From an uncultured Schlesneria sp. (GTDB lineage: Bacteria; Planctomycetota; Planctomycetia; Planctomycetales; Planctomycetaceae): a stretch of DNA of 35,603 nucleotides. The position numbers and the translations under genes are program-made. A model generated the notes under the pieces. It was given only the letters and a program-made list of their open reading frames with translations, was not told the DNA's origin and did not search any database. How positions within the stretch are numbered: position 1 is the first letter of the stretch; the number at the start of each line of letters is the position of its first letter. The stretch covers positions 1-35,603 of the forward strand of contig CAIULL010000009.1 of NCBI GenBank assembly GCA_903899985.1, given 5' to 3'. This document shows positions 209-34,752 of the stretch, piece by piece.

Positions 209-1258
209 TCAAAAATTGCTGTTCACTTCGCCACCCGCTCGTGAACCAAGTCCCTGCCAGACGGAAAGATCGACGTTGTTGCTGACAAACCGCACGCCCC
301 CATCACACATCAGGACGTGAACACCCCCAACGTGGCGGCTGCGAGCCGCTGTCAAGCCGGAGCTGTGACTCGTGTTACCACAATCGAACTGACTGGAGTT
401 AGGGGGCAGGCCGTGGTTATACAGCGTGTCGCCGTAGTGCCCGTTCAGCCATTTTGCGCTGCGAATCCCCGACCAGAATCCACCAGCCCCCACGACACAC
501 GTGGCGAGACTCGTATCATTGGCATCGGTATACGGACCACCTGAGGTCTGTGACGTTGTCAGATTGAGAACTTGTTGAGAGGGACTGACCGGAGCGGTCG
601 AACCGGCGATGACTGTAGCCACTCCTGCAGCACCTCCACCCCCCATCGCATAGCCATTCCCCAGGATTTCTTCGCTCACCGCGACTGTATTGGAAAGGCC
701 ATCCGTGACATCCCGGAACTTCACGATCCCCTGAAGTTTGGGGTCATACATTACTCCGTCCCCGGCGCGGATGTATCTCGTCGTCGGGCTCGATCCGCTT
801 CCCGTACAGACGACGTAGTTGGTCGGTCCGTACGAATTTCCCGGCACCGTTGCCAGATCGCTCGGACAGAGAAACATCGGTACTTTGGTGAGTGCCGCAA
901 TCACGTTTGCGGAATAGGGGGCGACCGGTGGCTCAGCAAACGTCGGAGCGGTGCTGAAGTCGATACTGTTATACAAATTGGCTGCGTCGAAGTAAGGCAT
1001 GAGTTGCGCGTGGGCCGAGAAGACCATCGGGTATCCGGTCCTAGCCGGTGGAAAGCTGCCGATACTTGATTCGTAATTGTGAAGCGCAAGCCCAAATTGC
1101 TTAAGATTGTTTTTGCACTGAGTGCGGCGAGCCGCTTCTCGAGCCTGTTGAACGGCAGGCAGCAGCAAGGCAATCAGAATCGCGATGATGGCAATCACAA
1201 CAAGCAGTTCGATCAGGGTAAACCCGCGGCTGCGGCGCGGTGGAAAATCTGTCGTCAT
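209..1258 (-). CDS. DUF1559 pseudopilin-like protein
   Basis: A protein of about 349 residues with a type IV pilin/type II secretion style N-terminus: a short basic leader (PPRRSRG), then [24 protein letters not shown], the prepilin cleavage and hydrophobic helix segment. This is followed by [27 protein letters not shown], typical of the DUF1559 family that is greatly expanded in Planctomycetes. The C-terminus carries the family H-x9-DG motif ([12 protein letters not shown]). A start 12 bases upstream (TTG, 1270) is possible, but ATG at 1258 has GGAG seven bases before it. The role is unknown; the leader implies processing by a prepilin peptidase and membrane or envelope location. It is one of five paralogues in the first 7.4 kb. 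Confidence 0.9.
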
Positions 1259-1313
1259 TATTTTCTCCAAATCATCAGAAGATGATATTACTTATCGAAG
1301 GGGAATAGTTTGC

Positions 1314-1404
1314 GCGGTCCGCGATGGCACGCTCACAATCGGGTTGGTTGGCACTTGTGGAGAGCTAATCAATAGCCAATCGTGAGCGTGCGATATCAGA
1401 CCGC
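1314..1404. repeat. Imperfect inverted repeat, 29-nt arms
   Basis: Arms 1314-1342 and 1376-1404 are inverted copies, with a perfect 10-base core GCACGCTCAC at 1327-1336 and flanking GCGGTC matching GACCGC. The loop is 33 bases. It sits between the start of the first DUF1559 gene and the end of the Cys-rich gene, both on the minus strand. It may end the upstream transcript or form a structured 5' leader for the DUF1559 gene. There is no T tract, so a classic rho-independent terminator is not supported. Nothing else is seen in the gap 1259-1615. Confidence 0.45.
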
Positions 1405-1615
1405 ACGAATCCTGTGGCAACGAAAGTCGATGTCCACTTCTGTCTGCCAGAATCCGTTGGCAAAGAAGCGAATTTCAAAATTTGGCGGGAAGAGATCTGC
1501 CCAAAGCCAGACCGCCTGTCGTGGCTCGACCTGACTAACCTGAGGACAAATCATCAAGCGGTCAGCGTTCGAACGTCCATTCTTCAAGAAATGGAGCTGC
1601 GAAACTGGGACAGAT

Positions 1616-2245
1616 TTACGCCACAGAAATACGCGGTGGGGGAACCGGTGGCTCAGCAATCGCCTGGACTATGACCGATCCCCGATTGATGAATCGCTCA
1701 ACAATCGATTCAACCAGGGGATTCAACGAAGTCATCGGAGGAATCAAAAAGACGGCCTGACCGAATGCGGTCTTGGCCAGGCCCTGACAGTCGTCCGCAA
1801 CCGCGCCGATCACGATTTTATATCGTGACGATGACGCCGCTTTTGCCTTGGGCGGGCGATGTGCGACTTTAGCTTTCGAACCGTTCTTGATCGTACAACA
1901 GACCTGAGGAGAAGCTTCGCAAGCCGGCGCCCGTTTCGCCGTCAAAACCACAACTTCTGAAGGGTCGACGCCGTGGCGTTTCGCCCACGCGAGTTTTTGC
2001 TCATCAGAAAAACAGCAACACTTCTTTTTACATTGCGCAGCAGACATACATCCGCAAGGACGATTCTGGCAGGGAAAAGGACGCGAAAGGTCCTTTCCCA
2101 CTTTAGAAGAAAAAGAAATCAACGGGATCGGCAGCAGCGCAATCACGAACCCCACCAGCAGCAAAAGCGAAATACTTTGCTGACGCGAAGAATGAGTCCA
2201 GGCATGCCACGAAAACGAAAGCACAGAAATTACCTTGTCCTTCAC
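1616..2245 (-). CDS. Planctomycete Cys-rich membrane-anchored protein (PCxxxPCGC motif)
   Basis: A 209-residue protein with one hydrophobic segment near the N-terminus (SISLLLLVGFVIALLPIPLI, about residues 24-43), so probably a signal anchor. Directly after it is a dense Cys cluster, PCQNRPCGCMSAAQCKKKCCC, followed by FSDEQKLAWAKRHGVDP. This cluster is recalled as a conserved planctomycete motif of unknown role; the spacing suggests metal binding or disulphides outside the cytoplasm. The C-terminal part is not recognised and ends in a Pro-rich tail. The start is GTG at 2245 with no clear ribosome binding site, so it is uncertain. It is followed 358 bases later by the first DUF1559 gene on the same strand. 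Confidence 0.7.
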   Translation of the reverse strand: MKDKVISVLSFSWHAWTHSSRQQSISLLLLVGFVIALLPIPLISFSSKVGKDLSRPFPCQNRPCGCMSAAQCKKKCCCFSDEQKLAWAKRHGVDPSEVVVLTAKRAPACEASPQVCCTIKNGSKAKVAHRPPKAKAASSSRYKIVIGAVADDCQGLAKTAFGQAVFLIPPMTSLNPLVESIVERFINRGSVIVQAIAEPPVPPPRISVA

Positions 2246-2368
2246 GGACAGTCTGATTGGCTATCGATTCGCTCTCCACACGAAAAAGTATAACCAGGTT
2301 GCCTGCAATTTTCGCTAGTGCGACGGCATTGAATCCGATTTTCCCACCCGCGGGAACAATCCAATGGT

Positions 2369-3436
2369 TTAGAAATCGCCGACGACGTTCCCGTCGTCAC
2401 GCGCGACAAGATTTCGAAGAGTGAGCCAGTTGAGGTTTTCGGAGATAAATCGAACGCTTCCATCCCCCATCAGAGCCTGAACTCCACCGACATGAAAACT
2501 GAAGGGCTCCATATTCGGACCGCAATTAAGAGTGGTCCATGGGCAGTTTGCAGGACCACCAAGTGGAGTCTTATTGCCATTGATGTATTGCAAGGTCCCT
2601 CCCGCGACATTCGTGAGCTGGCCATTGATGCCGGCACTGGCATCACCATCAGCCCATCGGTTTGGAGCGGTGTACTTTCCACCTGGCATCAGGGATGCGT
2701 CGATCCCCGGGCAATTACCAATTGTAAAATTGAATGCATACTTACCCGCAAGCCCCGCCGGTTTCCCTGCACATTCAATCACCGCGATCGTATTACTCAA
2801 CCCATCAGTCACGGCTGAGATCGGAAGGGGGAACAGCCCGTGCATACCTTCTTTTGTGGCGTTAACACTTGTCCCACCACCCGTCGGAAATGGGCCAATC
2901 GTATTCCCGGCGAGACCGTTTTTCAGCCCCGTAACGGGATCGATATCGACGTATTCGGTCGGATCGTAATCCGTCGTTCCAAACCCCTGAGGGTCGGCTG
3001 TTGTCACAGGATTAGAGGGACACAAGAACGCGGTAATTCTGGTCCTCGCAGCCGTGGCATTGTTCGATAACGTGCTGTTCGTGTAGTGCAGCGACAAATT
3101 AAACTGGTTGTAAACGGAAGCCTGATCCAGAAACGGCAAGATCTCGGTGAAATAAGAATCTGGAAAGCCGTAGAGATTGATCAGATTGAAGCTGACCCCC
3201 TTTCCTCCCGAAGGGAGCAAACTATATGTGGACTCGTAATTTGCTGAGGCCAGACCGAGCTGCTTCAGGTTGTTCTTACACTGTGTTCGGCGAGCCGCTT
3301 CGCGTGCCTGCTGCACGGCGGGAAGCAACAGGGCGATCAAGACCGCGATGATGGCAATGACCACTAGCAGCTCGATCAGCGTGAAGGCAGGACGACGATG
3401 GGCGTCGTGGCGAATGTAAAGGTGGGTCTGGCGCAT
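2369..3436 (-). CDS. DUF1559 pseudopilin-like protein
   Basis: About 355 residues. The leader [17 protein letters not shown] precedes [24 protein letters not shown] and [22 protein letters not shown], the prepilin-type N-terminus and first conserved block of DUF1559. The C-terminus has the H-x9-DG motif ([12 protein letters not shown]) and a final NVVGDF. The frame is open further upstream to 3529, but ATG at 3436 has AGGA eight bases before it and places the leader at the usual length. The gene diverges from the next DUF1559 gene (3854) across a hairpin-rich 417-base gap. The protein should be inserted in the inner membrane and cleaved; its partner or assembly is unknown. Confidence 0.9.
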
Positions 3437-3568
3437 TTCACGGTTCCTGCAGTGAATTGGTTTTGAATCGGCAGAATTTAACGCAAGTGACGCGCAACAC
3501 AAGTGAAAGATTCCATTTCGTTTTTCCAACCGAAGTCAATGCGACATGATCCTGCCATTTTATGTCAG

Positions 3569-3612
3569 GATTGTCACATTTGATTGTCGGGTTTGCATTC
3601 GATGTGACAATC
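3569..3612. promoter_or_regulatory. 11-bp perfect inverted repeat, possible operator
   Basis: GATTGTCACAT at 3569-3579 and its exact complement at 3602-3612 are separated by 22 bases. They lie in the divergent gap between the DUF1559 genes at 3436 (minus) and 3854 (plus), about 130 bases upstream of the minus-strand start. Centre-to-centre spacing of 33 bases, about three helical turns, would suit two regulator dimers or a looped complex. The surroundings are AT-rich (3640-3662). No known regulator consensus is recognised. Confidence 0.35.
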
Positions 3613-3740
3613 GATCGCGTGTGGCATCCCATTTTCCAACTTTAAAATAAAAAAACAAAATCGGAATTGCCCCACGTTTCTGCTGAAACACCGGGATAAT
3701 TCACTACACACCAACGAGTTTGATTGACTGACATCCTTAA

Positions 3741-3765
3741 GTTTGTGAGAGTTTCTCTCACAAAC
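3741..3765 (+). promoter_or_regulatory. Perfect 11-bp hairpin in the 5' region of a DUF1559 gene
   Basis: GTTTGTGAGAG at 3741-3751 is exactly complementary to 3755-3765 around a TTT loop. The stem is 88 bases upstream of the ATG at 3854. There is no following U tract and no upstream plus-strand gene to terminate. It could be a leader hairpin or a regulator-binding palindrome. Its position between divergent starts is all that suggests a role. Confidence 0.4.
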
Positions 3766-3853
3766 CTTGATCCGCGCCAGGAATACCGCCTTCCTGGGAA
3801 TGATCCGTCTTCAAAAATCTGTGTGAACCCGAGAGCATTGACCGGAATCGAAA

Positions 3854-4657
3854 ATGGAAACTCGAAGACACGATCGCTTTCGACGCGGGTTCACACTCGT
3901 CGAATTACTCGTCGTGATTGCGATCATCGCCTTGCTGATCGCATTAATTCTCCCCGCTGTGCAGCAGGTCCGCGAAGCGGCTCGCAAGATGGATTGCCAG
4001 TCGCATCTGCGACAGATTGGCCTGGCCGTTCATCAGTATTACGAAATCTACAATGGCCGGTTTTTTCTGCATCATCCGTTTGATGCCGATGTGATTGCCA
4101 ATAGCGGAGCGGCGGATTCGTTTGCTGAAATCTATTGGGCTGACAAGATCATGCCGTTTGTGGGAAGCGCTGCGGAGTCCGATGAGTCCGTGGCGAAAAG
4201 GGGGATCAACATCGCGACGAATAAGATTTATCGGTGCTTGTCCGACACGTCGACTCAGACGCCGTACATCGACTCTGTGACTGGCCAGCCAGATGGAATC
4301 GAGCAGCGGACCAGTTACATGATGAATTCGCTGCTCAGCCATAAGACGCGACGCTACGGCTTATGGACATTCCCCAGGTTCCAGATCGAAATCGGGCTCT
4401 CCAATTTCATCTGTTTTTCGGAGCGGGATGCGACCGCGTTTGCTCCGACGTCAGACAATGATCCGCGACAGGACGATTATGACGTCTGGCTGGGAACGGA
4501 CATTCTGCAGCCGTGGTTCGCGTACAAGCGTCACAACGGTGCCGCGAATTATCTGTACATGGACGGACATGTCTCGACAATGATTTTCGACAACGCCATC
4601 ATCGACATGTACCCGGACAAAAAAGTTCTGATCGACGACGGCAGCTATCCGAACTGA
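3854..4657 (+). CDS. DUF1559-like pseudopilin, short variant
   Basis: A 267-residue protein, shorter than its neighbours. The leader [12 protein letters not shown] precedes [24 protein letters not shown] and [22 protein letters not shown], a diverged DUF1559 first block. A degenerate H-x9-DG motif is present near the C-terminus ([12 protein letters not shown]), followed by [19 protein letters not shown] rather than the usual ISSNID/GGE ending. The middle also lacks similarity to the other four copies in the cluster, so it is an outlying paralogue. ATG at 3854 is preceded by a weak GGA. Export and prepilin-type cleavage are inferred from the N-terminus. Confidence 0.85.
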
Positions 4658-4860
4658 AATCCTGCGAGATGATCCGAGTGCCGTGTGTGAGCAGTTGCCG
4701 TCGGTCTGCCGCAGCAATTCACTCGTCAGTTGGATCCCAACGGACGAACCGGGGAAAATTCCCTCGCACCCGGTGATTTTTTCCTCATCCGGTTAACTCA
4801 CCTTCGGGAAATTGGCGGTATTTTCGTGGAGATTTCTCTGGAATGAACTTTGCGTTCCGA

Positions 4861-4882
4861 GCGTTGTGAAAGAAAACAACGC
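4861..4882 (+). promoter_or_regulatory. Small hairpin overlapping the translation start region
   Basis: GCGTTGT at 4861-4867 pairs with ACAACGC at 4876-4882, leaving a purine-rich eight-base loop (GAAAGAAA). It ends two bases before an ATG at 4884 and four bases before the GGAG used by ATG 4896. It could tune access of ribosomes to the DUF1559 gene. It is short and could be chance. Confidence 0.3.
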
Positions 4883-4895
4883 AATGGAGCCTTTT

Positions 4896-5903
4896 ATGAT
4901 GAGAAGTCGACGTCGGAATGGATTCACGCTGATTGAGTTACTGGTTGTGATCGCCATCATTGCCGTCCTGATTGCCTTGCTGCTGCCGGCGGTTCAACAG
5001 GCCAGAGAAGCGGCGCGACGGACTCAATGTAAAAACAACCTCAAACAAATCGGGTTGGCGCTGCACAATTATCTGGACGATCACTCCGCATTTCCGCCAA
5101 GTTTTTGTTTTTCAACTACAGGCTCGTGGTCCGTTCACGGTCGGATCCTGCCGTACATGGAACAAGCCAGTGCGTACTCACAGGTGAGGCTTGATCTCGA
5201 CTGGGCCAATCCGATTAATGAGGCGACACACGTGGCCCAGCTGCGCGTTCCATCGTATGTCTGTCCGTCAGATCCGAACGGGGATCGAATGCATTACGCG
5301 GGTCCCGACGAAGGAAATATCCGACCGCACAACTATGGAGTCAATTTTGGAACCTGGAAGATCTACGACCCGATCACCAATTCTGGCGGTGACGGCATTT
5401 TCTATCCGAACAGCCGGACTCGAGCCGCAGACGTTTTCGACGGGATGAGTAATACGCTGCTGACTGCCGAGGTCAAAACGTATCAACCCTATTTCCGCAA
5501 CACGGCCGACCCCGGCCCGACCCCTCCGTCGACCGTGTCATTCGTCACCGGATTTTCGGGCGAGGCGAAATACGGTCCGAATCTCGACGACAACGCGGGA
5601 CATACGGAATGGTGTGACGGGCCGGTTCATCAAAGTGGTTTTACAACGACGTTTCCACCCAATACCCGCCTCCCCTTTACCGATGGCGGAATCACGTACG
5701 ACACCGATTTCAATTCGCGCTACGAAGGAACCAGCTTGACTCAAACCACGTACGCCTCGATTACATCTCGCAGTTACCACACGGGGATCGTGAATGTGGG
5801 ACTGGCCGACGGATCAACACGAACGATCAGCTCGAATATTGACCGTCAGGTCTGGCGTGCGATGGGGACTCGGATTGGTGGAGAAGTCGTTGGCGATTAC
5901 TGA
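4896..5903 (+). CDS. DUF1559 pseudopilin-like protein
   Basis: About 335 residues. The N-terminus reads MMRSRRRNG then [24 protein letters not shown] and [26 protein letters not shown], the standard DUF1559 prepilin-type start. The middle has YVCPSD and a C-terminal H-x9-DG motif ([12 protein letters not shown]) followed by [18 protein letters not shown] and a GGEVVGDY ending. The frame opens at 4812, but GGAG at 4886-4889 lies six bases before ATG 4896, which gives the usual leader; ATG 4884 is an alternative. Its body is most like the frameshifted copy at 6367, sharing for example KNYQPY/KTYQPY, so these two are probably recent duplicates. Confidence 0.9.
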
Positions 5904-6366
5904 CGATCGATCGCTGCTCGTCTCGACACCCGTTTCCAAGTCCAAGACTGACAACGCGACCACAAGCACTCGTGAAATAAGCGGGAGTTCCGTGTTGTTT
6001 TTTCAATTTGCGATTCTTATTCGCAGTGCTTCCACTTCGGACGATTTTCATCGATCGGCCACCGACCGCCTAAACCATGCTGCAAAAGGTGACGACGCGG
6101 GCGAAATCAATAGGAATTTCGTTCAACAACTGTGAACCTCAGGTCGTCAGGGATGCGAAATGAGCGTGCTCATCACCGTTCTGGTTGAAATCTCAAACAG
6201 GGAACAACTGGAAGAAAATCAAGCACGGAAACCGACAGGATCGATTGCACCGTGAATTGATCGCTGCCGTTGAATTCTCATGAATTGACAATCCACCCTA
6301 TTTTCAATACAGAATGTCTTTAGTTTGACGAAGCGACTTTTGTTTGCAAGTGAGTGAGAAATACTC
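5904..6366. other. Intergenic region, no gene seen
   Basis: A 463-base gap between two co-directional DUF1559 genes. Frames open here are short and show no family resemblance. No terminator-like stem with a T tract is evident after 5903. A possible promoter lies at its right end (6285-6313). Confidence 0.5.
6285..6313 (+). promoter_or_regulatory. Possible sigma70-type promoter
   Basis: A consensus TTGACA at 6285-6290 is followed after 17 bases by TACAGA at 6308-6313, which matches the -10 consensus poorly (three of six). It lies about 54 bases upstream of the TTG start of the next DUF1559 gene. The position and spacing are right, but the -10 box is weak. Confidence 0.3.
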
Positions 6367-7423
6367 TTGTGCCGATCGGTAAAGCGCCAACCCGCGTTTA
6401 CGCTTATTGAGCTGCTTGTCGTGATCGCGATCATCGCAGTCTTGATTGCATTACTGCTTCCGGCCGTTCAACAGGCACGCGAAGCGGCTCGGCGTGCCCA
6501 GTGTAAGAGTCAATTAAAACAATTCGGCCTCGCAATCCACAATTACGAATCGTCGATGACCTGCCTTCCCCCCCGCGTCGGTCATTATCAAACGGACGGA
6601 CGGATCGATCTGGACGATGGATGTCAGTCCGTTTGCCAGACTTCTGCCCTATTTCGACCAGGGTAACGTTTACAACATGATGAACGTCAATGCCGAATAC
6701 AACGATCCGACGCTTTACAACTCGAACGCCGTCGGACGAGTGATCCCCTTCTTTCTTTGTCCCTCAGAAATCAATCGGGCGCCTAACTTCGTTGCAAAGT
6801 ACGGAAACATCGGCGGTGTGAATTACGGTTTTTGCATGGGGGACTGGTATGTCTGGTCAGGGATCAATGGCAGTCCCGCCGGTGACCCGCCAACTCGGTC
6901 GGCCTTCGGTGTGAATCTACAAAGACGCTGGGCCGACTTCACCGATGGTGTGAGTACTACGCTGCTGATGTCCGAGGTCAAGAATTATCAGCCCTACATC
7001 CGTGACTGCGGTTCATTGTCTCACATCAACACGCCAGGCAACATTCCATCCCCCGGTGCCGATCCGATGACGGTCGCACCGGAATACAGTGGAAGTGGCT
7101 GTACAATCCTGGCGAATGCGCACACCCAGTGGAACGAAGTGGCCGTGCACCACATCGGCATGACGACAGCCTGGCCGCCGAATAAGAAAACGCCCGGTGG
7201 GCCTGGCAACCTTTATCCCGACGTCGATTTGAACAGTCAGCGAGAGAGAATCGGCGGACCGACCTACGCGGCGATCACCTCGCGCAGTTACCATACGGGC
7301 GGCGTGAACACTCTTTTTGGTGACGGTTCTGTCAAATTCCTTTCCTCGTCCATTGACGGACTTGTCTGGCGAGCTGTCGGGACCGTAGCCGGCGGCGAAT
7401 TGGTTTCTGGCGATTCTTATTGA
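6367..7423 (+). pseudogene. Frameshifted DUF1559 pseudopilin-like gene
   Basis: The first part (6367-6600) encodes a prepilin-type start, [25 protein letters not shown] and [29 protein letters not shown]. The rest lies in the +1 frame and reads [25 protein letters not shown] through the H-x9-DG motif (HTGGVNTLFGDG) to 7423. Together they make a normal family member of about 350 residues. The shift falls between 6568 and 6603, where there is a run of seven C (6568-6574) and three tandem ACGG units (6592-6603). Removing one C or one ACGG unit restores the frame. The start is TTG at 6367, since TGA at 6355 excludes anything further upstream. It may be decayed, phase-variable or a sequencing indel. 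Confidence 0.85.
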
Positions 7424-29909: not shown

Positions 29910-31694
29910 TCAGTACGACGGCCGATCCAAAGGCCCTTCGTCGCTTAGGAGCGGACACAATTCCGCCGCATGCAGGACGTGCCGAATATCTCGCGGCTGG
30001 TCGTTCACCATGACGGTGCGACGCACGAGCCTGATCCCGTGACTGTAATCGACGTATGTGTTGTGGTGGACAATCGTCAAAGGCTGAATCGGCGCACCGT
30101 CGAGCTTGTGCCAGCCGTAGATCGCAACTCGATTTGGTTTCTCTTTCAGACGGTTCGTCACCACGACATCTTTCTTAGTCCCGGCGACCAGCTCGCCGAG
30201 TTTCCGGCCAGTCCGCTGTTTCTCAACAATCGTATTGTGCTGCAGAAAGGTTTCAGTCGCCTCCCGGGCTTCAGTCAGCGGCATCGGGGCGAGTTTTACG
30301 GATGCCGCCTTGTAGATCTGGTCCACAATTTTCTGCGTCGGCAGGGCACAACCGAAGGCGTCCGCGATCCGCTGCGCCGCCATCGGTGTCATCGGAACCC
30401 GCACGAAATCGTCGTCCGATCCGACAGCCAGATAATCTGGCATCACTTCGATGATGATTGAATGAACTGCGGAGGGGGTGGCCGTAGAGATATTGGATTT
30501 TGCTGGTTGACTAGCAGGAGCTTGCTCGCCCGGAAACGTGACAGATTGAAATCTCCGCAGGAAGCCAGGGATGTTGCCGCGGAGGATTTCTCGCGTCATC
30601 ATTTCCTCACGGTCAGCAGGTGATAATGAAGCAAGTTTCTGCAAGAGTTCTGACCCGCCTGCGGCGTCGGACGGTCGTGACGGGATGCCGGCGGCTGGCT
30701 GGATCATTTTTGTGTACGCGCGCGGGCCACCGAACGCGCCCCACTTCATCGTCGCATTCGCCGTCGCTGCGAGAAGTCCATTCATGTCGCCGACAAGGGC
30801 GGTATGCAGAATCCTCTTCTGCGGGTTCGTATGGACGTGGAACACAATCTGGTCGCCTGACCCTCGGTACGTCACGATGTCGGCAGCCTGCGATTCGGTG
30901 AGCGGAACGTCGCGGCCGAACCGGACCTTCATCCGCTCCGTCGCCCGGAACGTGCCGCCAACCGGACCGACCACCAACTTGCCGTCCAGCGTGATGTTGC
31001 GATCGTCGTATGCGATCACTGTCAGCCGCCGAGCATTATTACCGCCGAGCCAGGCCAGCAACTTGTCACCGTGCTTCGCGTCGTCACTGTACGAGTAGTT
31101 TGCGTCGAGGAAGGCGAAGCTCTCGATGTCGTTCGGTACCTCGTCCACTGATTCAAGAAACCCGAACAGGAAGCTGCCGCCACCGCTGTGCCCGGCGAGC
31201 GTGATCCGGACCTCTCGCCCCGGCATCCAACCACGGACCGTTTCCACGACACGTCGGACACGATTGTCTTCTCTCGAAATGGTCGGCGAAGTCGTGCCAG
31301 AGTCCGCAAATTGTTTCCGCCATGCTGGCCAACTCAGCCCGTCCGCCTCGCAACACGCAACCACAATGTTGTCGTCGGGCGAAACCTCCCGCAATCGACG
31401 GACTTGGGCGGCGACGTGCTGGATGTCGAAATGCCAGTCCGTCCCGGCCGGGGTCGTGCTGCCAAGGGTCTGTTCGATCGTGTTTCCGTTGGGTGTGGCG
31501 TAGATGACCAGCCGCGTCGGTCGGGCCGGATCGTACTTGGCGGGCGCGTTAACGACCACACGCACCCCATCGGCAAGCCACTCTTCACGAACTTGTTCAT
31601 CAAACCAGGCACTTCGATGAAATCCTGGCAACGTAGCAGGCGGTGTGGCGAGCAAGATAAAGGCGACGACGGCGGTCAGCATCGATGATCTCAT
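29910..31694 (-). CDS. Secreted alpha/beta-hydrolase-like protein with C-terminal YSHG domain
   Basis: About 594 residues. A signal peptide (SSMLTAVVAFILLATPPATLPG) is followed by a hydrolase-like region: RLVIYATPNGNTIEQTLG, then VRITLAGHSGGGSFLFGFLES with a nucleophile elbow GHSGG. The His and acid of a triad are not certain. After a low-complexity linker (about residue 400) comes a second domain: DYLAVGSDDDFVRVPMTPMAAQRIADAFGC, VAIYGWHKLDGAPIQPL and YVDYSHGIRLVRRTV, which I recall only from hypothetical proteins. Substrate unknown. GC content looks higher than in neighbouring genes. ATG 31694 and GTG 31697 are adjacent start choices, with no strong ribosome binding site. Confidence 0.8.
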   Translation of the reverse strand: MRSSMLTAVVAFILLATPPATLPGFHRSAWFDEQVREEWLADGVRVVVNAPAKYDPARPTRLVIYATPNGNTIEQTLGSTTPAGTDWHFDIQHVAAQVRRLREVSPDDNIVVACCEADGLSWPAWRKQFADSGTTSPTISREDNRVRRVVETVRGWMPGREVRITLAGHSGGGSFLFGFLESVDEVPNDIESFAFLDANYSYSDDAKHGDKLLAWLGGNNARRLTVIAYDDRNITLDGKLVVGPVGGTFRATERMKVRFGRDVPLTESQAADIVTYRGSGDQIVFHVHTNPQKRILHTALVGDMNGLLAATANATMKWGAFGGPRAYTKMIQPAAGIPSRPSDAAGGSELLQKLASLSPADREEMMTREILRGNIPGFLRRFQSVTFPGEQAPASQPAKSNISTATPSAVHSIIIEVMPDYLAVGSDDDFVRVPMTPMAAQRIADAFGCALPTQKIVDQIYKAASVKLAPMPLTEAREATETFLQHNTIVEKQRTGRKLGELVAGTKKDVVVTNRLKEKPNRVAIYGWHKLDGAPIQPLTIVHHNTYVDYSHGIRLVRRTVMVNDQPRDIRHVLHAAELCPLLSDEGPLDRPSY

Positions 31695-32360
31695 CACAGC
31701 TTTCGACTATTTGGCATCATGTGCCAACACTCTGAACCTTCTGCCACTGCGAGTCAATGTTGCCAGGCCCCTTCAACTCAGGCTGGCCGAAGGAATTTGC
31801 ACCGGTCCGACCACTCCGATCGATGTGACCGACGCAGACACTCGGTCCAAGAAAACGGTCGTTTGATGGGACATTCAAAAATCAATCTGTTCCCACGAGT
31901 TCTTGGAACAAAGAACGGAATTGGGCCAAGCAAGAATCCGTCCAATATCGCTGAACGGCCAAGTACAGCGGTCGATCCACACCCGGCTGCTCCCGTGATT
32001 GAGCCGCGCACCCACACGCGCAGATCGTGCAGGGTCCCCGAGTTTCGGTTTGGAGAATCGGAGTAAATCAGATGGGTCAAACGACCGTAGTGGCCCTGTT
32101 TCTGAAACAATCAAAGCAACTCCCGGTCAAGTCGTCCGAACTTGCCGCATCGAGATAATTCCGTGCAGTTGCCAGAATGCTGCGGGCGGTATGTCTTAAA
32201 GCAAAAAGGGGACAACACCTGGAATTCAATGGCTTCTAGAGCTTCTTCCAAATTGCAAAATTCACAAGTTGAATCGTCGGTAGTAACGAGAGGAAATCAA
32301 ATAGATCAGTCCAAGCTAACCGACTTCGTGGCATAGTCAATCAATAATCGACGTATCCAA
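31695..32360. other. Gene-free region with an interspersed repeat
   Basis: A 666-base gap at the start of the decayed right end. The frames here do not look like genes. It holds one copy of the repeat that recurs at 34541-34605; nothing else is recognised. Confidence 0.45.
31974..32044 (-). repeat. Interspersed repeat, copy A
   Basis: This 71-base segment matches 34541-34605 over nearly its whole length with a few substitutions and one 6-base length difference. On the minus strand it begins CTCGGGGACCCTGCACGATC and ends with GCAGCCGGGTGTGGATC. The same GGGTGTGGATC motif begins the palindrome that the group II intron splits. Part of it (CTGCACGATCTG) resembles the 3' half of the intron domain V with five bases missing, so it may be a very old intron 3' end. 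It could also be an independent repeat family. Confidence 0.6.
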
Positions 32361-32612
32361 TCACCGTTTCAATCCTCCCAGGTGGATTGCGGCGACATGT
32401 CCGACGCGAATTGTGTGCGTGGTCCGATCCGGGTATTTGTCGAGCGCCGCATTGACGGCACCATCGAAAGTCGAACCGACAAAATAATCACCCGACTCCG
32501 GCTCGATCGCGACGTACGATCCCCACGAATCCCGTTCGAGATCTTTACGTAATCGAGATTCGTAAAGGTCTTTCGCCTTCGCTGAGTTCGTTTTCAATCC
32601 CGCGGACGTCAT
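32361..32612 (-). CDS. Small conserved protein (VAIEPxSGDYF type)
   Basis: An 83-residue cytoplasmic protein. ATG 32612 has GGAGG seven bases before it, better than the earlier frame opening at 32642. The core LERDSWGSYVAIEPESGDYFVGSTFDGAVNAALDKYPDRTTHTIRVGHVAAIHLGG matches a widespread small family recalled from many bacteria, often beside a small retropepsin-like aspartic protease gene or in toxin-antitoxin-like pairs. No such partner lies downstream here; the next bases are repeat debris. The function is unknown. Confidence 0.72.
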   Translation of the reverse strand: MTSAGLKTNSAKAKDLYESRLRKDLERDSWGSYVAIEPESGDYFVGSTFDGAVNAALDKYPDRTTHTIRVGHVAAIHLGGLKR

Positions 32613-32642
32613 GACACGACCTCCCAAAAGATCATCGCTCAC

Positions 32643-33182
32643 CTGCTGAATTCGACTGCTGAACCGACTTCGTCAGCTTACGTCACGATATTGTCTGAAA
32701 CATCGGCTTTAAAGCAAGTTGAGTGTATCGTACTTCTTAAACCGGAAGTCCTCGCGATGCCGAGAAGTGGTATCTTCCCGGATGGTAAAAAGCTCGCGCC
32801 CCGCGAGTGCAAAGGCCGATTCATTCCGACGCTCACAGCGTCTGCCACGTAGCCGACGCAGTGAGCGTCGGCAAGCGTAAGGGATGCAGTAAGGAAAGGT
32901 TGAACAGAGTTCTTCAACCGTGTGATGTCTCGGTTTTCATGATGGCGGAATCCTCGGAATAATTGCGGGGAAGTTCATTGGAAGCAGGTCCGTTTCCCGG
33001 CACGCAGAAACCAAATGGAGCACCGATATCGGCAATGATCTGGCAGTTTTTCAACGAACGATTTGATGCCGGACGTCACACATCGTTTCACTCGTGTTGA
33101 AGCCGTTAAAGTCGCCTGGCGAGCAACCGGGTTTTCTTTTCCAAACACTCACACTCCGAAACCATTCCTGTGTCAAATGCAC
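32643..33182. other. Gene-free region with hairpins
   Basis: No gene was found. GCCGACGC (32852-32859) pairs with GCGTCGGC (32865-32872) around AGTGA, and CCGACGCTCAC (32826-32836) is the inverse of 32861-32871, giving two alternative stems. Motifs of this GCCGACGCTCAC kind are scattered in planctomycete genomes and may be REP-like. Confidence 0.4.
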
Positions 33183-33183
33183 T

Positions 33184-33212
33184 TTGACCGGTATTACGGG
33201 GTGTGGTAGGCT
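33184..33212 (+). promoter_or_regulatory. Possible promoter of the toxin-antitoxin operon
   Basis: TTGACC at 33184-33189 is followed after 17 bases by TAGGCT at 33207-33212, 32 bases before the antitoxin ATG. The -35 box is near consensus and the -10 box is weak. Confidence 0.3.
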
Positions 33213-33244
33213 AGTGAAAGTAATGAAGACATTTGGAGATAACA

Positions 33245-33475
33245 ATGCAGTCACTTCAACCAACCACGCTCGCAAGTTTTCACCAGTTCATTGGACAGCA
33301 ACTGGCGTCAGAATCTGCGGCTCAGATGTCGCCCGAGCTGGCACTCGCCATGTGGCGAGAGCGCCAAGATGCAGTGGCCGCAATCCGCGAGGGACTTGCG
33401 GATGTTGATGCTGGTCGAACGTACCCCGCAGAGGATGTGATCCGTGAAATGCGAGCGGAGCTGAACGGTGCATGA
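33245..33475 (+). CDS. Antitoxin of a type II toxin-antitoxin pair
   Basis: A 76-residue acidic protein from ATG 33245, with GGAG six bases upstream. The C-terminal part, WRERQDAVAAIREGLADVDAGRTYPAEDVIREMRAELNGA, is typical of antitoxins of RelE/ParE toxins: a helix with Asp/Gly-rich turn and the AEDVxREMR segment. It should bind the toxin and repress its own promoter. Its stop overlaps the toxin start (ATGA at 33472-33475), the usual coupled arrangement. Since the toxin is frameshifted, the antitoxin may now act alone. Confidence 0.8.
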   Translation: MQSLQPTTLASFHQFIGQQLASESAAQMSPELALAMWRERQDAVAAIREGLADVDAGRTYPAEDVIREMRAELNGA

Positions 33476-33805
33476 GCTTCCAAATCTCAATTTCACAGCG
33501 TGCAAAACGCGATATCCGTGAGATTGTTAATTGGATTAAGGAAAGGTCCTCAAAGGGCGCTTTGAGGTGGCTGGATACCCTTGAGAAAACGTTGAGGGAA
33601 CTTGAAACGCGGGCCGTCTCTTGCGGCCCTGCTACCGAGGCTGACGATTTCGACGTGGATTTACGACAACGGCTGTTCAAAACACGACGAGGTTAACACC
33701 TATCGTCTCGTGTTCATCCTTCGTGAGGATGTCGTCCATATCCTTGCTGTTCGCGGAACCGGTCAGGATCTCCTTCAGCTTGGAGACATCAAATTTCCAG
33801 ATTAA
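33472..33805 (+). pseudogene. Frameshifted RelE/ParE-family toxin
   Basis: Translation from ATG 33472 gives MSFQISISQRAKRDIREIVNWIKERS...LRQRLFKTRRG and stops at TAA 33694-33696 after 74 codons. The +1 frame continues NTYRLVFILREDVVHILAVRGTGQDLLQLGD to 33805. The join LFKTRRG-NTYRLVF is exactly that of a whole RelE/ParE toxin (about 110 residues). One extra T in GGTTAAC (33693-33694) causes the shift. The lost part carries the central beta-sheet strands and the catalytic or gyrase-contacting end, so the product should be inactive. It may be a real loss, or an assembly indel. Confidence 0.85.
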
Positions 33806-33807
33806 AT

Positions 33808-34551
33808 GGGTGTGGATCAGGGGACAGGTCCTGATGTATTTGGAATCGCGGTAGGGACGGCCATTGCTGGCCGCCCCCCGCACAGATCCGTACGTGCAGA
33901 ACTACTGCATACGGCTCTTACCTTGGATGATGACGAGTGTCGTCCCAACGGGTTCAAGTCGCCCCGATCCCGTTGAGTCGTTGCTCGTACGCCAAACAGT
34001 CCGTGCAATTTGGAAACCCGGCCCTGTGTCCGGACCAATAACAACTGTTTGTCGTTCGCCTTGGTCAGTCCCGTTTCCTCCACGGACTCCGCTACCGTTG
34101 TCAGTCCGGCTTTGTTCGCCCGCTTCACAGGTACTATGAGACTGTCTGACTTCCCAGGAACGTACATGTCGGACTTGTGGCATCTCACCTTCTCCGACCG
34201 ATCCGTCCCAAACGAAACGGATATTCCTGGGATCTCCCAGCTTCCGCGAGAAAAGCTTCCGACCGTGCGCGTGGCCTCTGACTCCGTGAGGGTGACATCG
34301 AACTCGCCTTTGACGTTCGACGACACTGTTGCCTTCCCCTTGACAGGACAAGGTCGGCCCTACAAAGAAATGATTTCGGAGCTCAATACACGGCCCGGTC
34401 GTACCCCTGTGAACGCTTCGACCGGTCGGTTGCCCGACAAGACGCATCACTCGGAGCCAAGGCGATTGGCTAGGTCTTACCTCGTACGAAACTTTCATTC
34501 GCAACTTTCCTCCGGCTTGTGCTGGCGCACCCTGTCCCCTGATCCACACCC
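33808..34551. repeat. 24-bp inverted repeat split by a group II intron
   Basis: The left arm is 33808-33831. The right arm is 33842-33844 plus 34531-34551. When the intron 33845-34530 is taken out, the two arms are perfectly complementary over 24 bases around a 10-base loop (33832-33841). The arm begins GGGTGTGGATCAGGGGACAG. The palindrome is probably a mobile or REP-type element that served as intron target. The GGGTGTGGATC part also occurs in the repeat copy at 31974-32044. Confidence 0.85.
33845..34530 (-). ncRNA. ORF-less group II intron
   Basis: On the minus strand the element starts GTGCGCCAGCACAAG at 34530, a group II intron 5' end. Domain V is the 34-base hairpin 33917-33884: it begins GAGCCGTA and ends TACGGATCT, with TGCAG/CTGCA closing the loop. 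Domain VI follows (a 9-bp stem, one G-U pair, about 33878-33851), with the likely branch A eight bases before the 3' end in CTACCGCGAT at 33845. The putative EBS1 CCTGTC (34347-34342) is complementary to the last six exon bases GACAGG. At 686 bases there is no reverse transcriptase; both long frames across it are non-coding. Excision restores a perfect palindrome. The domain V loop TAGTT replaces the usual GAAA-type loop, so activity may be reduced. Mobility would need a maturase supplied in trans. Confidence 0.85.
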
Positions 34552-34605
34552 GGCTGCTCCCGTAGTTGAGCCGCGTACGCACAGATCGTGCAGTGTCCCC
34601 GAGTT
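34541..34605 (-). repeat. Interspersed repeat, copy B
   Basis: This is the second copy of the segment at 31974-32044, with about 6 bases fewer. It lies between the 5' exon of the intact intron and the fragment of a second intron. Its GGGTGTGGATC end overlaps the right arm of the palindrome. The 11-base GTGTCCCCGAG at 34593-34603 recurs at 34754-34764, on the other side of the intron fragment. Confidence 0.6.
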
Positions 34606-34752
34606 CAATACACAGCCTGGTCTTTCCCCTGTGAACGCTTCGATGAGTGGGTTGCCCCACACATCGCATCACTCGTGGCCAAGGCGATTGGCTAAATCTT
34701 ACCTTGTACGAAACTTGCATTCGCTACAATCCTCCGCCTTGTGCTGGCGCAC
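34604..34752 (-). mobile_element. 5' fragment of a second group II intron
   Basis: From 34752 down, the minus strand reads GTGCGCCAGCACAAG and continues in close parallel with the first ~145 bases of the intact intron: TAGCCAATCGCCTTGG, CGAGTGATGCG, GAAGCGTTCACAGGGG and TGTATTGA occur in both. It then breaks off at GAACTC and passes into the repeat copy. Domains II-VI are missing. The fragment is bounded by two copies of GTGTCCCCGAG (34593-34603 and 34754-34764). It is a degenerate relic of the same intron family, probably made by a deletion or by recombination. Confidence 0.75.

What the first reader, a model, noticed from the sequence alone, without database searches (positions are those of the whole stretch)
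33845..34530. ORF-less group II intron with exact ends
Domain V, domain VI, a GTGCG 5' end and an EBS1-IBS1 match (CCTGTC with GACAGG) are all visible on the minus strand. Taking out exactly these 686 bases restores a perfect 24-bp inverted repeat, which fixes both splice points. Bacterial group II introns without a reverse transcriptase are uncommon; one this short would depend on a maturase made elsewhere.
Basis: partly seen in the sequence, partly recalled or inferred. Interest (0 to 1): 0.82.

Follow-up and report, generated by a model that had tools for sequence, protein, structure and literature searches.

The report
Orphan group II intron without maturase
A planctomycete genome carries a complete 686-base intron of the self-splicing type that has lost its own reverse transcriptase gene, seems to have spread with borrowed enzyme by changing its targeting sequence, and now sits inside a repeated DNA hairpin in a genome where no intact helper enzyme was found.

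Summary
Window 33845-34530 (minus strand) is a complete, precisely bounded group II intron without a working maturase gene. Rfam finds domain I (157.5 bits) and domains V-VI (41.4 bits). Domains I-III fold with strong covariation: 131 pairs, 95.0% of cells paired, 56 pairs changed on both sides. The window copy keeps 128 of 131 pairs, about as many as a relative with an open reverse transcriptase (129). Removing the 686 bases restores a perfect 24-bp hairpin, and an uninterrupted copy of that hairpin on another contig confirms both ends. Full-length relatives (1.9 kb) carry an open maturase; the window copy is an ORF-deletion form. ORF loss recurred, also in contigs binned as Nitrospira and Syntrophobacter. 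EBS1 and IBS1 co-vary: 17 of 25 copies pair perfectly, in five different pairs. The window copy and its closest relative share the domain IV remnant but sit at different sites with different EBS1, so at least one probably moved after gene loss. No intact cognate maturase was found in this genome or five others searched. This resembles the Thermosynechococcus ORF-less introns without the driver: new member of a known kind.

The parts
33845..34530 (-). whole ORF-less group II intron, 686 nt, GTGCG...CCGCGAT
   Evidence: Rfam RF02005 and RF00029; full-length homologues with the same ends; empty hairpin on C270
34237..34525 (-). domain I (alignment A1 columns 9-324)
   Evidence: RF02005 157.5 bits; covariation
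34342..34347 (-). EBS1, CCTGTC, in a domain I hairpin loop
   Evidence: sequence; covariation with IBS1 over 25 copies
34531..34536 (-). IBS1, GACAGG, last six bases of the 5' exon
34148..34236 (-). domain II (A1 columns 325-434)
   Evidence: RNAalifold and pair counts
34066..34144 (-). domain III (A1 columns 455-546)
   Evidence: RNAalifold and pair counts
33922..34065 (-). collapsed domain IV: most of the maturase gene deleted, remnant of its coding ends left
   Evidence: alignment with the 1,919-nt maturase-bearing relative L049; remnant shared with L047, score 29 against a shuffled maximum of 11.5
33928..34320 (-). open frame aligning with residues 1-132 of the cognate maturase (relic, overlaps RNA domains)
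33845..33919 (-). domains V and VI; candidate branch-point A eighth from the 3' end (reading of triad and branch point recalled)
   Evidence: RF00029; alignment of 18 copies
33808..33844 (+). one arm (33808-33831), loop (33832-33841) and three bases of the other arm of the split REP-like hairpin
   Evidence: empty copies on C270 and in G146:C157
34531..34551 (-). rest of the other hairpin arm (5' exon, contains IBS1)
34601..34752 (-). second intron copy, first 152 nt only, 5' exon ending GGGGACACA
   Evidence: 85% identity; RF02005 83 bits at 34593-34717; exon

Best explanation
It is a complete group II intron of the RF02005 (domain I) type that lost its reverse transcriptase/maturase gene by a deletion inside domain IV while keeping all six RNA domains. 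Shown: structure, ends, target pairing, the existence of maturase-bearing relatives, and that the window copy and its closest relative share the domain IV remnant yet sit at different sites with different, matching EBS1/IBS1. Inferred: at least one of these two moved after the gene was lost, by reverse splicing into a DNA site matched by EBS1, with a maturase supplied in trans by a full-length relative; the window copy landed in the arm of a REP-like hairpin. The helper has since been lost or has decayed in this genome, so the copy is probably an orphan: structurally intact, able at most to splice by itself or to wait for a new helper.
For: Rfam hits. Covariation of domains I-III: 95.0% of 1,829 cells paired against 36.6-43.5% with slid partners; 56 of 131 pairs with both-side changes against a shuffled mean of 27.9, 0 of 500 shuffles as high. 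Window copy 128 of 131 pairs, ORF-less L046 131, maturase-bearing L049 129. EBS1-IBS1: 17 of 25 copies perfect, 136 of 150 Watson-Crick positions, permuted mean 99.7 and maximum 121 in 20,000; of four further copies L158, L168 and L160 are perfect and L171 5 of 6. Maturase-bearing relative with a 565-codon open frame (TIGR04416 346 bits) and three more open relatives. Window and L047 are sisters (99/100), are both 686 nt and align without a gap through domain IV (score 29 against a shuffled maximum of 11.5); the 700-base 5' flank of L047 matched in only its own genome of 15 in the genus. A third close copy, a 5' fragment 97% identical over 96 nt, sits at another site of the own genome behind a GATAAG exon. 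No intact cognate maturase in the own genome: 3 matches, all partial; its only RVT_1 match is retron-like.
Against: No RNA data: splicing is unproven. The assembly is in 296 contigs, so a collapsed or missing maturase copy cannot be excluded, and a GIIM-domain fragment lies at a contig end (C200:12-131). L047 is decaying (13 of 131 pairs broken), and between it and the window copy no pair changed on both sides, 6 on one side and 14 were lost or gained, so selection on structure after gene loss is not shown for this pair. Part of the domain IV remnant is old coding sequence, so its similarity alone does not prove one deletion. Eight of 25 copies do not pair perfectly; L061a pairs at only 2 of 6.
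Confidence: 0.72

Rival explanations
1. A dead relic: a once maturase-bearing intron that inserted here, then lost its gene in place, and no longer splices or moves.
For: No intact helper in the genome; of 9 matches in the own genome only the window copy is full length; the intron interrupts no coding gene seen here, so splicing is not needed; its sister L047 is decaying.
Against: 128 of 131 conserved pairs intact, end branch 0.017 against 0.13 for L047, complete domain V stem; the domain IV remnant shared with L047 at a different site argues that gene loss preceded at least one insertion.
Confidence: 0.22
2. An independent, self-sufficient ribozyme intron like C.te.I1 of Clostridium tetani, needing no maturase.
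For: No intact cognate maturase in the own genome or in five other genomes, four with ORF-less copies and one with a partly deleted copy; ribozyme helices conserved.
Against: No host gene that would reward splicing; domain IV still holds maturase coding remnants, so the gene loss is not very old.
Confidence: 0.05
3. Assembly artefact: the intron and hairpin are a mis-join.
For: 296-contig assembly with repeats nearby.
Against: 686- and 688-nt copies with the same ends in two other assemblies; the ends agree with the empty hairpin on C270.
Confidence: 0.01

Closest known systems
ORF-less TeI3 introns of Thermosynechococcus elongatus (PMC2882425, passages)
   Same: maturase deleted in domain IV with N-terminal coding remnant left, shared deletion point, spread to new sites after EBS divergence, one intron family inserted in an IS200-family element
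   Different: there the genome holds maturases that act as drivers and 17 ORF-less copies from one deletion; here no intact cognate maturase was found and ORF loss occurred at least a few times
C.te.I1 of Clostridium tetani (review PMC4424553, passages)
   Same: ORF-less intron without a related intact maturase gene in its genome
   Different: self-splicing shown there; nothing shown here, and maturase remnants are still visible here
full-length RF02005-type introns, e.g. the ltrA intron of Pseudomonas putida plasmid NZ_CP047313.1
   Same: same Rfam domain I family and domain V/VI; maturase 54.7% identical over residues 1-539, with the long N-terminal frame that overlaps the RNA domains
   Different: carries its maturase
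mobile elements in REP sequences, including 2 of 9 group II introns of P. putida KT2440 (PMC1525189, one table passage)
   Same: mobile element in a repeated extragenic palindrome
   Different: Pseudomonas REPs; intron ends and pairing not examined here

Membership tests
group II intron | domain V/VI | tested here: met
   RF00029 41.4 bits, cut-off 40; alignment
group II intron | domains I-III with conserved helices | tested here: met
   RF02005 157.5 bits; pair counts
group II intron | GUGYG 5' end and AY 3' end (consensus recalled) | tested here: met
   GTGCG at 34530 and GAT ending at 33845
group II intron | EBS1-IBS1 pairing | tested here: met
   6 of 6; covaries across copies
group II intron | kappa, lambda, alpha, epsilon, gamma contacts and EBS2 | not tested
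   no dedicated test made
group II intron | splicing as lariat | not testable with these tools
   needs RNA
T. elongatus-like trans-mobilised ORF-less introns | shared ORF deletion followed by spread with EBS divergence | tested here: met
   window and L047 only, two copies
T. elongatus-like trans-mobilised ORF-less introns | driver maturase in the same genome | tested here: not met
   3 partial matches only, draft assembly
C. tetani-like orphan intron | no related maturase in the genome | tested here: inconclusive
   none intact, but draft assembly with decayed remnants

The most novel reading that the evidence does not exclude
Orphan ORF-less group II introns form a recurrent class of non-autonomous retroelements in Planctomycetota, Nitrospirota and Desulfobacterota: they repeatedly shed the maturase, stay structurally intact, re-aim EBS1 at repeated DNA (REP hairpin arms, even a GAGCAC tandem repeat) and persist in genomes without a resident driver, being moved by maturases that come and go.
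Probability: 0.3. Interest if true: 0.65.

Novelty: new member of a known kind. Interest (0 to 1): 0.46.

Why it matters
A review describes ORF-less group II introns in bacteria as rare and nearly always accompanied by a related maturase (PMC4424553, passages). Here five genomes with ORF-less copies and one with a partly deleted copy show no intact cognate maturase. The family offers ORF-less and maturase-bearing forms side by side with a readable EBS1 code, which makes the step from autonomous retroelement to dependent ribozyme, a step often invoked on the way to spliceosomal introns, directly testable.

Tried and rejected
A general rule that IBS1 sits in a hairpin loop was rejected: over the 9 sites scored, stems around the junction sum to 33 against a mean of 31.6 when flanks are re-paired at random, 1,077 of 3,000 as high (L168 dropped for a short 3' flank, L160 not entered, the L158 5' edge one base off). 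Only the window, Nitrospira (L158) and Syntrophobacter (L171) sites look like REP hairpins or arms; the others share the 5' half only.

High target copy number in the own genome was not supported: in 379,915 of its 8.0 million bases GGGGACAGG, GGTGTCAGG, GGGGTCAGG and GGGGATAAG occur 4, 1, 5 and 1 times, within the range of permuted words. In the order the longer motif AGGKGTCAGGARYC is enriched, 807 against 45 for the reversed control over 170 genomes, unevenly: 159 of the 807 are in G130, and the own genome has 5 against 1. That motif is the GTCAGG site type, not the window's GACAGG.

One origin of all ORF-less copies was rejected: on a tree of 23 rows, 7 labelled, the label needs 5 changes and starred branches force at least 3. 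The domain IV of L046 shows no similarity to that of the window (657 of 1,000 shuffles as high); that of L048 is borderline (14 of 1,000) and is not counted as shared.

Compensatory change after gene loss is not demonstrated for the window-L047 pair: 0 both-side, 6 one-side, 14 lost or gained pairs.

A first genome contigs pattern was mis-spaced and found nothing; the corrected one gave 16 stretches. Paper searches for group II introns with planctomycetes, REP, RAYT or Schlesneria listed no title or abstract start on this element; PMC8919778 holds no word beginning planctomyc. Only these searches support that. A search for an N-terminal ORF overlap with the RNA domains and a look into PMC3552965 gave nothing used.

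Full report
Observation. The minus strand of 33845-34530 carries a full group II intron. Rfam at gathering thresholds gives RF02005 (domain I) over its whole model at 34272-34495 (157.5 bits), RF00029 (domains V-VI) at 33845-33919 (41.4 bits, cut-off 40), and a second domain I match at 34593-34717 (83 bits) that belongs to a truncated copy. The ends read GTGCG and GAT. The exons form a 21-bp perfect inverted repeat that becomes 24 perfect pairs with a 10-nt loop when they are joined.

Exact ends. Contig C270 of the same genome holds a paralogous segment, homologous in pieces (96% over 1,070 and over 477 bases, 94% over the last 217, plus shorter ones). The last piece ends at window base 33844, the base before the intron, and C270 then continues into the other hairpin arm. 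A one-mismatch search of the whole genome for the arm core found three places: the window and, with one mismatch each, the two arms of that empty hairpin. Another empty hairpin of this kind lies in the related genome G146, contig C157. The splice points are thus fixed by an empty site as well as by symmetry.

Relatives. A DNA search of 170 genomes of the order found matches, many of them fragments, in 39. Full-length ORF-less copies are L047 (G146, 686 nt, 87%), L048 (G139, 688 nt, 82%) and L046 (G146, 671 nt, 81%); L062 and L063 (about 665 nt, 68-70%) are more distant, and L059 (491 nt) has also lost the domain III region. L049 (G076) is 1,919 nt and encloses a 565-codon open frame, a group II maturase by TIGR04416 (346 bits, cut-off 300) with RVT_1 as its only Pfam match.

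Wider distribution. An exact pattern for domains V-VI over the genome-contig collection gave 16 stretches. Four are the known L046, L048, L049 and L056 loci. Two are further ORF-less copies of about 670 nt, in contigs binned as Nitrospira (L158, 79%) and Syntrophobacter (L171, 78%). L160 (another planctomycete) lost most of its maturase. L163, L167 and L168 carry open maturases (552-553 codons, no stops, YADD present). The other six are 3' pieces, four of them beginning at a contig edge or nearly so. These are MAG contigs, so mis-binning is possible. The same RNA family carries ltrA in Pseudomonas putida and Rhizobium plasmids.

Structure. On 14 aligned copies RNAalifold gives 131 pairs, including helices of domains II and III. 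Counted on that alignment, 95.0% of cells pair, 56 pairs have a both-side change (shuffled mean 27.9) and 174 cells do (shuffled 50.2), with 0 of 500 shuffles as high; slid structures pair 36.6-43.5%. The structure was derived from this alignment, which favours it over the slid versions, and relatedness inflates the shuffle contrast. Broken pairs per copy: window 3, L046 0, L049 2, L048 6, L047 13, L063 12, L062 16. Tertiary contacts were not tested.

Targeting. For 25 copies with both EBS1 and IBS1 readable, 17 pair perfectly at six positions, with five different pairs (GACAGG, GACACA, GATAAG, GTCAGG, GACTGG). Re-pairing EBS1 among copies gives a mean of 99.7 Watson-Crick positions of 150 (maximum 121 in 20,000) against 136 observed. 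I read the hexamers by eye from the aligned hairpin; for L062 and L063 I placed the 5' end at GAAAGCGCC rather than at the first alignment edge; related copies are not independent. Ten of the 35 copies, without a readable EBS1, were left out. Four later copies add three perfect pairs, one a sixth type (AGCACG/CGTGCT, L160, in a GAGCAC tandem repeat), and one 5-of-6 (L171).

Gene loss and movement. The window copy and L047 are sisters (99/100), are both 686 nt, and align without a gap through domain IV (score 29, shuffled maximum 11.5), but have different exons and different matched EBS1 (CCTGTC and CTTATC). The 700-base 5' flank of L047 has no match in the window genome or in 13 other genomes of the genus. 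So at least one of the two most likely moved after the gene was lost. A 5' fragment on C194 of the own genome, 97% identical over 96 nt, sits behind a GATAAG exon like that of L047, another sign of spread. On the tree ORF loss needs at least three changes, so it recurs. The maturase N-terminal remnant is open in the window (132 residues) and has stops in L046, L047 and L048.

Helper. In the own genome (99.97% complete, 296 contigs) the maturase query finds three partial matches: the window remnant, C271 (residues 442-544, two stops) and C253 (residues 40-153, one stop). The only RVT_1 match, on C76, is retron-like, below the NCBIfam cut-offs; a GIIM fragment lies at the end of C200. In five more genomes, four with ORF-less copies (L156, L158, L164, L171) and one with a partly deleted copy (L160), no intact cognate maturase was found; the genome of L164 has other reverse transcriptases at 30-39% identity, and completeness is not given in that call. 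Mobilisation in trans is therefore inferred for the past, and present activity is open.

Target type. The window site is an arm of a REP-like hairpin. Sites of the GTCAGG type match a motif enriched 807 to 45 in the order. Of twelve inverted pairs that I picked from the listed places, six are 24 bp and six 730-732 bp apart. Two of the latter were looked into and enclose a Y1_Tnp (IS200-like) gene; one of the 24-bp kind was read and is a hairpin. The 3' flanks of L158 (AACC) and L171 (AGTC) continue that motif. A general hairpin-loop rule was tested and not supported.

Comparison. The review passages read call ORF-less bacterial introns rare and nearly always accompanied by a related maturase, with C. 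tetani C.te.I1 as sole exception (PMC4424553); a later survey counts 888 of 13,041 without IEP (PMC8919778). The T. elongatus introns show the same route: one ORF deletion, then spread after EBS divergence, with drivers in the genome (PMC2882425). What differs here is repeated gene loss, probable spread over several phyla, and no resident driver found. I rate it a new member of a known kind.

Noticed in passing
window 34601-34752 (-): A second intron copy, first 152 nt only, with another 5' exon type (GGGGACACA), lies 70 bases upstream of the full intron.
   Followed up: partly
L046/L164 and L049/L169: Introns in head-to-tail tandem: the 3' end CCGCGAT of one abuts the GTGCGCC 5' end of the next with no base between.
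   Followed up: partly
window 30766-33844 and G000:C270: A paralogous segment, about 86-97% identical in pieces, whose homology ends at the REP-like hairpin.
   Followed up: partly
window 33472-33690 (+): A ParE-like frame (PF05016, 23.2 bits, cut-off 23) ends early before the hairpin; its paralogue on C270 is interrupted by an insert of roughly 190 bases.
   Followed up: partly
L160 (planctomycete MAG ZE-3NOV15): An intron copy sits in a GAGCAC tandem repeat with a perfectly matching EBS1 (CGTGCT).
   Followed up: partly
G000:C76:69707-70348: A 462-codon retron-like or unclassified reverse transcriptase (PADLOC RT_other, 416.7 bits) outside the intron family.
   Followed up: partly
G025, G031, G032, G034: AGGTGTCAGGAACC-type motifs occur as inverted pairs 24 bp or about 730 bp apart; two of the latter enclose Y1_Tnp genes: a REP/RAYT-like system (name recalled).
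   Followed up: partly
window 209-7423: Several neighbouring ORFs share a prepilin-like start ([13 protein letters not shown]...), usual in planctomycetes (recalled).
   Followed up: no
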